A DNA stretch of 64,000 nt. It comes from Gammaproteobacteria bacterium. Lineage in GTDB: Bacteria; Pseudomonadota; Gammaproteobacteria; Burkholderiales; Gallionellaceae. The position numbers were made by a program, and so were the translations under genes. Within the stretch, counting starts at the first letter, position 1. Each line of letters begins with the position of its first letter. Location: positions 1 through 64,000 of the forward strand of contig JAHJNJ010000004.1 of the NCBI GenBank assembly GCA_018820925.1. Direction: 5' to 3'. Under the pieces are notes generated by a model, which was given only the letters and a program-made list of their open reading frames with translations, was not told the origin of the DNA and made no database searches. This document shows positions 27,211-31,950 of the stretch, piece by piece.

Positions 27211-28494
27211 CTAGCGCACGAATGCCTTGCGTCCTGCGTACACTGCTGAATCACCCAGGTATTCTTCGATGCGCATCAGCTGGTTGTATTTTTCCAGGCG
27301 CTCGCCACGGCACGGTGCGCCAGTCTTGAGGTGGCCGGTACCCAAAGCTACGGTGAAGTCGGCGATGAAGCTGTCCACTGTCTCTCCACTGCGATGCGAC
27401 ACCATTGCGCCCCAATTGACGCCGTACGCCAGTTGCACCGCCGCGATGGTTTCGGTGAGTGAGCCGATCTGGTTGAGCTTGATCAACACTGCATTGGCGA
27501 TATTCTCGTCTATGCCGCGTTGGATGCGCTCCACATTGGTGACAAAGATATCGTCGCCCACCAGCTCGATTTTGCCGCCCAACTCGTGGTTCAATAACTT
27601 CCAGCCGTCCCAGTCGTCTTCGGCAAGGCCATCCTCCAGCACCGCGAGGGGATACTTTTTCACCCAATCAGCGTACATCGCCACCATCTCGGAGGCAGTC
27701 ACTTTGCGGTTCTCGGTGCGCAGGTTGTACAGACCGTCCTCATAAAAGCCACTGGAGGCAGGATCGATGGCGATCACCACGTCCTCCCCGGGACGGTAGC
27801 CCGCACCTTCAATCGCCTTGAGGATCACTTCTATGGCCTCGACATTGCGCTTCAGTGCCGGCGCAAAGCCGCCTTCGTCGCCCACGCCGGTAGAATAGCC
27901 AGCATCCTTGAGCACCGATTTCAGGGTGTGGTAAATCTCGCTGCCCCAGCGCAATGCCTCGGCAAAGTTGGGGGCACCCACCGGAGCGATCATGAATTCC
28001 TGCAGGTCGGTGCCTTGCCAGTTGGCATGCACACCACCGTTGAGAATGTTGAACATGGGCACCGGCAGCCGGTTGGCTGCAGCCCCGCCAAGGTAGCGGA
28101 ACAGCGGCAAATTGCTGGCTTCCGCAGCCGCCCTTGCCGTCGCCATGCTCACCCCCAGAATGGCGTTAGCGCCGAGTTTTTCTTTGTGGGAAGTACCATC
28201 CAGATCAATCATGGCTCGATCTATTGCACCTTGATCGAGCGCGTCCATACCAATGAGTGCTGAAGCAATATCATCATTGACGTGACCGACGGCTTTTTTC
28301 ACCCCCTTACCGCCGTAGCGCTTCTTGTCGCCATCACGCAATTCCAGCGCCTCGTGCACGCCGGTAGAAGCACCGGACGGCACTGCCGCGCGACCGAATG
28401 AACCGTCTTCGAGAGTAACTTCCACCTCTACAGTTGGATTGCCGCGTGAGTCTAGAATTTCGCGTGCGTGAATACGTTCGATGCAGGTGTACAT
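27211..28494 (-). CDS. eno: Enolase, divergent copy linked to fluoride resistance
   Basis: 427 residues with AAGGAGG just upstream. Enolase converts 2-phosphoglycerate to phosphoenolpyruvate and is the classical fluoride-inhibited glycolytic enzyme. Conserved pieces are present: [73 protein letters not shown] and [15 protein letters not shown]. Some blocks differ from the common housekeeping form, for example [20 protein letters not shown] where NIINGGAHADNNVDIQEFM is usual, and [10 protein letters not shown] for LDCAASEFY. That suggests a specialised paralogue rather than the main glycolytic gene. It is the last gene of the riboswitch-led operon, after a 143-bp gap that could hold its own promoter. 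Relative fluoride insensitivity is an inference. Confidence 0.93.
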
Positions 28495-28637
28495 AGAGCC
28501 TCCTTGATAGTTAACTTTTCATTACCCTTTAAATCAATTCAATCCAAGTCATTGTAAGGCTACACCTCTATAAACCATTTGCAGCCTTTCGCTATTGAAC
28601 GGTGTAGCGCTGAATTACGATGCCTTGAATGCAGATA

Positions 28638-29060
28638 TCAAGCATCAACTTCACCTTTGTTCTGCAATGCAGCAAGTGCCAGTCCAGCGCCTTCCCGTAC
28701 CGCATGAGCTGTGTGACGCGCATGTAAGTCTGACAATGCGCCCATTCGCACCCCAGCATCCTTTATTTGTACAAGACTATTGATGATTTCCAGCCCTTCC
28801 ACCACATCCGAGGGATGACGCAGAGCACAAGCTACCAAGTCATCCGCTGTCTCTGGTTCACCCCGCCAACCCAAGGCAATGATTGCCCGCATCCTGACAT
28901 CCGCAAGAGGATGTAACAGCGCAAGTGTCAGTCTCACCCGATAGCTTTGCTCCGAATACGCCACGAGATCGGCCCCACATTGTGGGCAAACCTGCTCTTC
29001 CACCGGAATCAGATGAAAACATGCCAAGCAGATTTGCTGCTGTCCTGCTATGTTGGACAT
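28638..29060 (-). CDS. Zinc-ribbon plus HEAT-like repeat protein, unknown function
   Basis: 140 residues; the start codon abuts the preceding UspA-family stop, so it is in the same operon. The N-terminus has a CLAC...CPQC pair (about residues 11-31), a likely zinc ribbon. From about residue 45 the sequence is helical with HEAT-like repeats (PLADVRMRAIIALGWRG, HPSDVVEGLEIINSLVQIKDAGVRMGAL, AVREGAGLALAALQ). No catalytic motif is visible. Such proteins usually act as protein-binding scaffolds. Placement in a fluoride-responsive operon is the only functional clue. Confidence 0.8.
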   Translation of the reverse strand: MSNIAGQQQICLACFHLIPVEEQVCPQCGADLVAYSEQSYRVRLTLALLHPLADVRMRAIIALGWRGEPETADDLVACALRHPSDVVEGLEIINSLVQIKDAGVRMGALSDLHARHTAHAVREGAGLALAALQNKGEVDA

Positions 29061-29474
29061 TCAGCCGCGCACCACCGTTACCGAACAGGGGGCATAGGCA
29101 ATCACCTGCCGTGCCACCGAACCGAGCAGCCAGCGTTCAAACAGACTATGGCCGCGATGGCCCACTACGATATGGTCTATGCCGTGGTCTTCGGCATAGA
29201 GCACGATACTTTCTGCGGGGTGCCCGAGCACCACCTCGAAGTGGGCCGTTAAGCCGGCGGCCCGGTCTTTCAGCGAGTGCAGGAGTTGAGTGTAATGACG
29301 GCGCGAGCTTTCGATGATGGCCTCCGTTTCCACTTCTGCGCCGAATTCCGGCGCACTTGCCACCGCGAGGATATGCAATTCGGCACTGTATTTGTTGGCC
29401 AAGTCCAGGGCAAATTCGAAGGCGGCCTTGGATGGGTTCGAGCCATCATAAGCAACGAGCACTTTTTTGATCAT
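29061..29474 (-). CDS. Universal stress protein, UspA family
   Basis: 137 residues from the ATG at 29474, chosen because AAGGAG lies 8 bp upstream; an upstream in-frame ATG (29510) would sit inside the antiporter gene. Single Usp domain: KKVLVAYDGSNPSKAAFEFALDLA at the start, and the ATP-binding type loop G-H-R-G-H-S-L-F near the end (HIVVGHRGHSLFERWLLGSVARQVIAYAPCSVTVVRG). Universal stress genes are among those reported downstream of fluoride riboswitches. It starts 13 bp after the antiporter stop. Confidence 0.93.
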   Translation of the reverse strand: MIKKVLVAYDGSNPSKAAFEFALDLANKYSAELHILAVASAPEFGAEVETEAIIESSRRHYTQLLHSLKDRAAGLTAHFEVVLGHPAESIVLYAEDHGIDHIVVGHRGHSLFERWLLGSVARQVIAYAPCSVTVVRG

Positions 29475-29487
29475 GGTGGTGGTCTCC

Positions 29488-31034: not shown

Positions 31035-31415
31035 TCAGTAAGACTGTTTAGCTGGTATCACGCCACGTACACCGCCGCGCGGGTTCTCCATATCGCCTTG
31101 ATAGCGCGGAATGAGATGCAGATGCACGTGGAAGATCGTCTGGCCCGCAACTTCGCCAACGTTGATGCCGATGTTGTAACCGACAGGCGCATGTTTGCCA
31201 TCCAGATAGGACTTTGCTTCATCAAGCAGTGACAACAACGCGTCTTTCTCCGCGTGAGTGCAAAGAAAAAAGTCGGCAACATGGCGCTTGGGGATGATCA
31301 GCAGGTGGCCGGGATTGACCGGGCTCTTATCCAGAATGGAATAGGCCAGCTCGTTCTCGAACAGGATGCTCTCAGGGCGACAGAACGGACAGTTTTGCGA
31401 GCTGTTGTTCATCAT
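31035..31415 (-). CDS. HIT-family nucleotide hydrolase/transferase
   Basis: 126 residues from ATG 31415; ATG 31412 is one codon downstream. The start overlaps the crcB stop (ATGATGA), and AGGAG lies just upstream. It begins with an NCPFC motif, then SILDKSPVNPGHLLIIPKRHVADFF, and has the histidine triad HVHLHLIPR near the C-terminus, where the central His forms the nucleotidyl intermediate. HIT proteins cleave nucleoside polyphosphates, AMP-lysine or AMP-amidates. Some HIT-family members also hydrolyse adenosine 5'-phosphofluoridate; whether this one does is unknown, but its place in a fluoride operon makes it worth testing. Confidence 0.93.
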   Translation of the reverse strand: MMNNSSQNCPFCRPESILFENELAYSILDKSPVNPGHLLIIPKRHVADFFLCTHAEKDALLSLLDEAKSYLDGKHAPVGYNIGINVGEVAGQTIFHVHLHLIPRYQGDMENPRGGVRGVIPAKQSY

Positions 31416-31807
31416 GCGGCTCCTTTTGCTTTGAGCAGACTGACTGTCAGTATACCCAGTGTAGTCATGACCAGCGATCCGCCAAGATGAAACGTCGTGT
31501 GAGCCAAGGCCCAAAGATACTCGTTGCGGGAAATGAGGGTGACTGCTTCAGCGGAGAAAGTGGAGAAGGTGGTGAGTCCACCCATGAAACCTGTGATAAC
31601 GAACAGCCTGTATTCCGGCGGCAGACCAGCATGTTCGGTAAAGATCGCAACGGCCACGCCGACCAGATAACCACCGATCAGGTTGGCAGCGAGCGTACCA
31701 ATGGGAAGTGTGGGGAAAACCGGGTTGAGCAAAACGCCCAGCCACCAGCGCAACCATGCGCCGATTGCGGCACCGCAACCCACTGCAAGAAAACCATAGA
31801 AACCCAT
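31412..31807 (-). CDS. crcB: Fluoride exporter CrcB/Fluc
   Basis: 131 residues with four transmembrane helices, the size of a Fluc channel subunit that works as an antiparallel dimer. Hallmarks: GCGAAIGAWLRWWLG at the N-terminus, LPIGTLAANLIGGYLVG (the conserved Asn-bearing helix) and the GFMGGLTTFSTFSAEAV break-helix motif with the Phe residues lining the fluoride path. It exports cytoplasmic fluoride down its gradient. It is the first gene after the fluoride riboswitch on this strand, about 50 nt after the terminator stem, so expression should rise when fluoride accumulates. Confidence 0.97.
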   Translation of the reverse strand: MGFYGFLAVGCGAAIGAWLRWWLGVLLNPVFPTLPIGTLAANLIGGYLVGVAVAIFTEHAGLPPEYRLFVITGFMGGLTTFSTFSAEAVTLISRNEYLWALAHTTFHLGGSLVMTTLGILTVSLLKAKGAA

Positions 31808-31854
31808 GTGTTAACACTCCGTCCAGATTGATTTTTATCCGGCAGAGCGGGCAG

Positions 31855-31895
31855 AAAAAATGCCTACCGCCCCGTTGCCGGGTTATCGGTAGGCA
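31855..31895 (-). terminator. Riboswitch-controlled intrinsic terminator upstream of crcB
   Basis: On the minus strand TGCCTACCG (31895-31887) pairs with CGGTAGGCA (31869-31861), with an inner CCCG/CGGG stem, followed directly by six T (31860-31855). The 5' arm overlaps the 3' end of the aptamer (GCCTACC), so ligand-bound pseudoknot and terminator cannot form together. This gives a standard ON switch. Confidence 0.92.
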
Positions 31896-31950
31896 TCATC
31901 AGCCCTGATGGGCGGTTCGGAATAAGACGTCCGGGAGGTAAGCCATCTCC
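31888..31950 (-). promoter_or_regulatory. Fluoride riboswitch (crcB motif) aptamer
   Basis: Read 5' to 3' on the minus strand: GGAGATGGCTTACCTCC (P1 hairpin with the GATGG loop), a linker ending in GAA, CCGCCC-ATCA-GGGC (P3), then TGATGATGCCTACC. This matches the published crcB-motif consensus (GG-N-GATGG...CC, then AAC-N-GCC...GGC-TGATGA-CCTAC). The GGC of the first loop can pair with GCC in the 3' segment to make the pseudoknot that encloses fluoride with magnesium ions. It lies about 80 bp upstream of crcB and just after the EamA gene stop. Confidence 0.95.

What the first reader, a model, noticed from the sequence alone, without database searches (positions are those of the whole stretch)
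27211..31950. Seven-gene fluoride-response operon led by a fluoride riboswitch
The aptamer at 31888-31950 and a terminator sharing its 3' arm lie before crcB. Six further genes follow in tight succession (HIT, DUF190, CPA2 antiporter, UspA, zinc-ribbon/HEAT, enolase). CrcB, antiporters, UspA and enolase are known fluoride-riboswitch regulon members; finding them together with HIT and HEAT proteins in one unit is an unusually complete detoxification module.
Basis: partly seen in the sequence, partly recalled or inferred. Interest (0 to 1): 0.85.

Follow-up and report, generated by a model that had tools for sequence, protein, structure and literature searches.

The report
Fluoride-switched operon with divergent enolase
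A bacterial RNA switch that senses fluoride sits in front of a row of fluoride-defence genes, and the last of them is an unusual second form of the fluoride-sensitive enzyme enolase that turns up repeatedly in fluoride-defence gene clusters of bacteria and archaea and may be a fluoride-tolerant replacement.

Summary
Rfam finds one fluoride riboswitch at 31883-31959 (-), 46.1 bits, the only one in the assembly. A strong terminator shares its 3' arm (z -4.05). Seven co-directional genes of the named families follow. Six are tightly packed; enolase lies 143 nt further on, so its co-transcription is unproven.

The five-gene core crcB-HIT-DUF190-CPA2-Usp recurs at 2 of 38 other riboswitch sites. 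The enolase belongs to a separate clade (SH-aLRT 99) with a Trp inserted after the catalytic-loop His and no Glu after SHRSGET; members lie in fluoride clusters on plasmids, in Proteobacteria and in methanogens, although 84 of 118 loci showed no marker in the stretch held. The HIT protein is a distinct paralogue: 9 of 11 close copies, this one included, lie within 1 kb behind a riboswitch.

I propose antitermination by fluoride giving export, pH control and a substitute enolase. Tolerance is untested; extra dosage is a serious rival. Its status as only enolase is probably an assembly gap. The operon is a known kind.

The parts
31883..31959 (-). fluoride riboswitch aptamer (RF01734)
   Evidence: Rfam 46.1 bits, gathering 34; R1 61.5 bits (but R1 was built partly from it); pseudoknot covariation in 27 aligned aptamers, one window pair not standard
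31859..31897 (-). intrinsic terminator hairpin whose 5' arm is the aptamer's 3' strand; U-run follows
   Evidence: fold of 31849-31900, -24.6 kcal/mol, z -4.05
31412..31807 (-). crcB, Fluc fluoride channel
   Evidence: PF02537 E 1.3e-27; NF010792 171.9 bits, cut-off 125
31035..31412 (-). HIT-family nucleotide hydrolase/transferase, fluoride-linked paralogue
   Evidence: PF01230 E 8.5e-23; HVHLHLI motif; 11 close against 61 more distant HIT places in 299 genomes
30660..31010 (-). DUF190 (UPF0166)
   Evidence: PF02641 E 1.5e-19; solved relatives 1o51, 2dcl
29488..30663 (-). CPA2 cation/proton antiporter, membrane domain only
   Evidence: PF00999 E 4e-36; sequence relative of KefC 8bxg
29061..29474 (-). 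universal stress protein
   Evidence: PF00582 E 1.3e-35
28638..29060 (-). zinc-ribbon + HEAT protein (znHEAT), uncharacterised
   Evidence: PF13646 over cut-off, PF18912 below cut-off; four invariant Cys in 5 aligned relatives; found in 9 of 399 sampled genomes of the order
27211..28494 (-). W-type (Trp-insertion) enolase
   Evidence: TIGR01060 645.7 bits; signature and clade; catalytic residues invariant in 27 aligned W-type
32011..32445 (-). half-size EamA/DMT transporter upstream of the riboswitch; recurrent neighbour, not under this riboswitch
   Evidence: PF00892 E 6.9e-23; relatives beside crcB or W-type enolase

Best explanation
It is a fluoride-inducible detoxification and target-protection operon. 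Without fluoride, the leader RNA folds the terminator at 31859-31897 and transcription stops before crcB. Mg-bound fluoride stabilises the aptamer pseudoknot, which holds the strand the terminator needs, so transcription continues. The products then act at several levels: CrcB lets fluoride out; the CPA2 antiporter restores cytoplasmic pH lowered by HF entry; Usp and znHEAT are stress accessories; DUF190 may regulate one of the transporters; the HIT paralogue removes unwanted adenylyl derivatives, possibly adenosine phosphorofluoridate; and the W-type enolase keeps lower glycolysis running while the ordinary enolase is blocked by Mg-fluoride-phosphate. Shown here: aptamer and terminator by sequence and fold, gene identities, recurrence of the gene set, and enolase clade and context. 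Inferred: switching direction, transcript extent to eno, and the roles of HIT, DUF190 and znHEAT. The fluoride tolerance of the enolase is a hypothesis.
For: Riboswitch and terminator sharing its arm. Gene families. At the 38 other over-cut-off riboswitch sites in 299 genomes, the downstream 7 kb holds crcB in 17, DUF190 17, CPA2 10, Usp 9, HIT 8, znHEAT 3, eno 2. Closest operons: L090 and L107 (crcB, HIT, DUF190, CPA2, Usp) and L086 (HIT, DUF190, CPA2, Usp, a second-type eno). W-type enolases lie in fluoride clusters on plasmids of Massilia, Pseudomonas, Klebsiella and Enterobacter. W-type is one clade, SH-aLRT 99, with the insertion column left out. Riboswitch within 5 kb of 23 of 53 W-type against 1 of 37 other enolases in the same 50 genomes. 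In Enterobacter cloacae FRM, loss of eno-uspA-ppaC together cost more tolerance than loss of crcB (PMC5533749, section 9 read); the ppaC, uspA and eno lengths and gene order match plasmid locus L142, whose enolase is W-type.
Against: No expression or enzyme data. 143-nt gap before eno. One window pseudoknot pair is not standard. The 50 genomes were picked by me from 118 after seeing context, so 23 of 53 is inflated; over all 118 loci (blocks of up to 8 kb, not centred) a riboswitch is in 30 and any marker in 34. W-type eno of G025 and G003, same genus, have no riboswitch or fluoride gene in their 16 kb. Ordinary-clade (L095) and second-type (L086, L108, L137, L309) enolases also lie in fluoride contexts, so tolerance may not be needed. 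The FRM deletion removed three genes at once, not eno alone. In fluoride-resistant Streptococcus mutans, altered enolase was proposed but the evidence was inconsistent (PMC5508371, passages).
Confidence: 0.8

Rival explanations
1. Dosage: the enolase is just a second, normal enzyme made in quantity under fluoride; the Trp insertion and loss of Glu are clade history unrelated to fluoride.
For: [quoted passage not shown] PMC5533749 speaks of additional copies. Enolases without the insertion also occur in fluoride units (L086, L095, L108, L137, L309). 84 of 118 W-type loci show no fluoride marker in the stretch held, and in 16 of the 50 genomes all enolases found are W-type, so the clade also serves as ordinary enolase.
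Against: The same divergent clade recurs in fluoride units of distant lineages, although a copy of the local enolase would do for dosage; the consistent changes lie in catalytic-loop and phosphate-binding stretches.
Confidence: 0.45
2. The riboswitch controls only crcB to znHEAT; eno is a separate unit that landed behind it by horizontal transfer and has its own promoter.
For: 143-nt gap; different upstream neighbours and leaders of W-type eno in the relatives compared, including an MFS gene in G335 and G451.
Against: No terminator or promoter match on the - strand in the gap, no unusual fold (z 0.60); W-type eno often shares a fluoride unit elsewhere.
Confidence: 0.3
3. The gene row is a general acid/metal stress operon and the aptamer is decayed.
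For: One pseudoknot pair is not standard in the window aptamer only, among 27.
Against: 46.1 bits in Rfam, intact terminator overlap, and same-genus relatives G012 and G023 with riboswitches before crcB-HIT-DUF190.
Confidence: 0.07

Closest known systems
Enterobacter cloacae FRM GI3 operon (ppaC-uspA-eno-gpmA-crcB-orf5249; PMC5533749)
   Same: fluoride riboswitch, crcB, a Usp and, by gene order and length match to L142, probably a W-type enolase
   Different: no HIT, DUF190, CPA2 or znHEAT among the six genes; has ppaC and gpmA; the L142 enolase is 65.6% identical to the window's
crcB-HIT-DUF190-CPA2-Usp operons of same-order genomes (L090, L107)
   Same: riboswitch first, same five genes in the same order, CPA2 87-89% identical
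   Different: no znHEAT or enolase found within the stretch held; in L107 the contig ends soon after Usp, and that genome (G235) has a W-type enolase on another contig
G451 locus L123
   Same: riboswitch, crcB-HIT-DUF190, then znHEAT and a W-type enolase 85% identical
   Different: phosphatase-like, dynamin-like, CFA-synthase-like and MFS genes; no CPA2 or Usp found
fluoride riboswitch regulon of Baker et al. 2012 (recalled; paper not held)
   Same: exporters, antiporters and enolase as members (as cited in PMC11139923, passages); Usp recalled
   Different: I found no paper naming a HIT protein in it; znHEAT was not searched for in papers

Membership tests
Fluoride riboswitch RF01734 | covariance model score over gathering | tested here: met
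   46.1 against 34 bits
Fluoride riboswitch RF01734 | pseudoknot between P1 loop and 3' strand | tested here: inconclusive
   4 of 5 pairs standard in the window; that fifth pair is standard in the other 26
Fluoride riboswitch RF01734 | fluoride-dependent switching | not testable with these tools
   terminator overlap only
CrcB/Fluc | family model over cut-off | tested here: met
HIT superfamily | family model and H-x-H-x-H-x-x motif | tested here: met
   PF01230; HVHLHLI
Enolase | TIGR01060 cut-off | tested here: met
   645.7 against 300 bits
Enolase | catalytic and Mg residues kept | tested here: met
   H156, E166, E207, D244, E287, D314, K339, H367, R368, S369, K390 invariant in 27 W-type, window included; their equivalence to yeast residues is recalled
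W-type enolase clade (named here) | extra residue in loop 2, no Glu after SHRSGET, single clade | tested here: met
   extra residue in 19 of 19 (Trp 18, Gly 1) and absent in 42 of 42 others; Val 19 of 19 against Glu 42 of 42; in the motif-selected set position 373 is Val in 89 and Glu in 0 of 109 with a letter there; clade SH-aLRT 99
Fluoride-tolerant enzyme | raised fluoride Ki | not testable with these tools
   none
DUF190 | PF02641 cut-off | tested here: met
   70.5 against 23.4 bits

The most novel reading that the evidence does not exclude
The W-type enolase is an ancient fluoride-tolerant isozyme, exchanged between archaea and bacteria and kept under fluoride control as a target replacement, in the way antibiotic-resistant target enzymes work. 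The linked HIT paralogue is a fluoronucleotide hydrolase (adenosine phosphorofluoridate), a detoxification step for fluoride that I did not find in the papers I searched.
Probability: 0.3. Interest if true: 0.82.

Novelty: new variant of a known kind. Interest (0 to 1): 0.55.

Why it matters
Enolase is the classic fluoride target. If the riboswitch-linked clade is a tolerant isozyme, its consistent loop changes give a direct test of what makes enolase fluoride-sensitive, a question left open by inconsistent results from resistant Streptococcus mutans, and supply a part for strains that make or break organofluorines. The HIT, DUF190 and znHEAT links give functional leads for proteins whose role in fluoride defence I did not find described.

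Tried and rejected
Rejected: 'the operon holds the cell's only enolase'. One enolase was found in the assembly, but pyrG was not found either, and a same-genus pyrG-kdsA-eno-ftsB stretch matches G000 only at the end of contig C49, at one stretch of about 117 bases, and at this enolase. The ordinary gene most likely fell into an assembly gap. Rejected: 'the Trp insertion is exclusive to fluoride units'; 84 of 118 W-type loci show no marker in the stretch held. Corrected: one search scored L350 as non-W because its reading frame is cut by the contig end; its letters show the Trp motif, and the counts were redone. FastTree support for the W clade was unusable after re-rooting and replaced. The paper searches on HIT proteins and fluoride gave nothing relevant; HIT action on adenosine phosphorofluoridate is recalled only. 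Structure prediction gave an ordinary high-confidence enolase fold (pLDDT 92.2) and no new information on the loop; no fold search was run. The R1 model holds only the pseudoknot helix, so it is nearly a sequence model; of the 24 paired-set loci with an R1 hit 16 were given to Rfam and all 16 had at least one over-gathering match; the other 8, among them the weakest (L286), were not.
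Full report
Observation. Rfam finds a fluoride riboswitch at 31883-31959 (-), 46.1 bits, the only match in the 3.44-Mb assembly. The leader then forms a strong terminator (31859-31897; z -4.05) whose 5' arm is the aptamer's 3' strand, the layout of a transcriptional ON switch. Across 27 aligned aptamers the pseudoknot shows compensatory changes. The window is the single sequence with a non-standard pair in it: its letters are GGCUU against AUGCC, where most relatives have GGCAU against AUGCC.

Genes. CrcB, HIT, DUF190, a CPA2 antiporter, Usp, a zinc-ribbon/HEAT protein and enolase follow on the same strand. The first six overlap or lie within 24 nt; enolase starts 143 nt after the sixth. 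No - strand terminator or promoter match lies in that gap and its fold is ordinary (z 0.60). An EamA-like gene (32011-32445) ends 51 nt before the aptamer.

Recurrence in the order. Of 299 genomes, the own included, 38 have a riboswitch match and 30 one over the cut-off (stricter filters, so some weak ones are lost). One search lists 47 places, 39 over the cut-off. I examined the 38 over-cut-off places other than the window's own and left out 8 weaker ones. Downstream within 7 kb on the same strand: crcB 17, DUF190 17, CPA2 10, Usp 9, HIT 8, CLC 5, gpmA 3, znHEAT 3, eno 2. L090 and L107 hold crcB, HIT, DUF190, CPA2 and Usp in the window's order by their tblastn positions; L086 holds HIT, DUF190, CPA2, Usp and an enolase.

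HIT. A protein search of 299 genomes gave 72 places in 66 genomes. Eleven are 63-100% identical to the window HIT, the window's own included. Nine of these lie 190-644 nt behind a riboswitch, one (G236:C44:22383) about 5 kb from one, and one (G028) has no riboswitch or crcB hit in 18 kb. The other 61 are 57% or less; compared by eye with the places, none lies near a listed riboswitch. The own genome has such a second HIT (G000:C18, 54%). So the operon HIT is a distinct paralogue, with an intact HVHLHLI motif.

znHEAT. Nine of 399 sampled order genomes have it at E 1e-8; five of these were in the model. Seven of the nine lie on a stretch with a fluoride riboswitch (G000, G051 at about 11 kb, G204, G236, G247, G349, G451); G314 and G505 showed none in short flanks.

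Enolase. Only one enolase was found in the assembly, but pyrG was not found either, so the ordinary gene was probably lost in assembly. All 33 other genomes of the genus have an enolase match, in G021 only a fragment; the 30 fetched as loci in that call are all of the ordinary kind. The window enolase is about 60% identical to these and 65-91% to a second set of enolases in the order and on plasmids. Of 19 such proteins (65% or more, identical ones dropped) all have one extra residue after the catalytic-loop His (Trp in 18, Gly in 1) and Val after SHRSGET; all 42 other enolases in that alignment lack the residue and have Glu. In 112 proteins long enough to place, position 361 is Trp in 109 of 109 with a letter, 373 is Val in 89 and Glu in none of 109, 397 is Gly in 108 of 111. 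In a tree of 101 enolases, thinned from 132 and with the insertion column removed, the 57 W-type form one clade, SH-aLRT 99 (quick method, no bootstrap). Four other fluoride-linked enolases (L086, L108, L137, L309) form a separate clade.

Context of the clade. Over all 118 loci, in blocks of up to 8 kb not centred on eno, 30 hold a riboswitch (R1, E 0.006 or better), 16 hold crcB, DUF190 or CLC, 34 either, 84 neither. For a paired control I took 50 genomes, chosen by me from the 118 after seeing context, hence biased upward. A riboswitch (R1, E 0.05 or better) lies within 5 kb, contig ends permitting, of 23 of 53 W-type against 1 of 37 other enolases; any marker 27 of 53 against 1 of 37. In 34 genomes with both types the marker is beside the W-type only in 20, beside the other only in 1 (a second-type enolase), neither in 13; in the 16 genomes with W-type alone it is present in 6. 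Using all 118 instead, 34 of 118 against 1 of 37 gives Fisher p 5e-4. Of the 24 paired-set loci with an R1 hit I gave 16 to Rfam and all 16 were confirmed, several from methanogens. Against: the W-type enolases of G025 and G003 in the same genus have no such neighbour in 16 kb; an ordinary-clade enolase stands about 440 nt upstream of a riboswitch in L095.

Mechanism. PMC5533749 (passages and section 9 read) reports a riboswitch-led operon with eno induced 176-fold by fluoride, and that removing eno-uspA-ppaC together stopped growth on 1,000 mg/L fluoride plates while removing crcB did not. Its ppaC, uspA and eno lengths (963, 429, 1287) equal those of plasmid locus L142, whose enolase has the Trp and Val signature. 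That this is the same enolase is inferred, because the FRM sequence itself was not read. The paper and the review PMC11139923 (passages) explain extra enolase as dosage. Altered enolase has been discussed for fluoride-resistant S. mutans: one strain's enzyme was less sensitive but not enough to explain resistance, others showed no difference (PMC5508371, passages; also PMC8071458, passages). I found no paper on a divergent riboswitch-linked enolase (of the 11 papers listed I looked into passages of five) or on HIT with crcB in this open-licence library; Baker et al. 2012 is not held.

Verdict. An ordinary kind of fluoride operon, well supported, with a divergent enolase and a fluoride-linked HIT paralogue as the new and testable features.

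Noticed in passing
window 32011-32445 (-): Half-size EamA/DMT gene just upstream of the riboswitch; an 82% identical relative lies beside a W-type enolase in L126, and others in fluoride clusters.
   Followed up: partly
L086, L108, L137, L309: Second, separate enolase clade, also in fluoride contexts, without the Trp insertion.
   Followed up: partly
L070 5800-18200: Stretch behind the riboswitch of a same-family genome with complex-I-like subunits, a dynamin-like GTPase and a CFA-synthase-like gene beside znHEAT.
   Followed up: partly
L121 7275-8444, L123 8441-9610: MFS transporter directly upstream of W-type enolase; the window has znHEAT there instead.
   Followed up: no
G000 assembly: In a genome scored 100% complete, pyrG and an ordinary enolase were not found.
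   Followed up: yes
L316, L330, L331, L338: Archaeal loci (Methanoregula and kin by title) with two or three fluoride riboswitches each around a W-type enolase.
   Followed up: partly
window 18704-26435 (+): Type II secretion/pilus-like genes (T2SSF, T2SSE, secretin, N-methyl pseudopilin) on the opposite strand, convergent with the operon.
   Followed up: no
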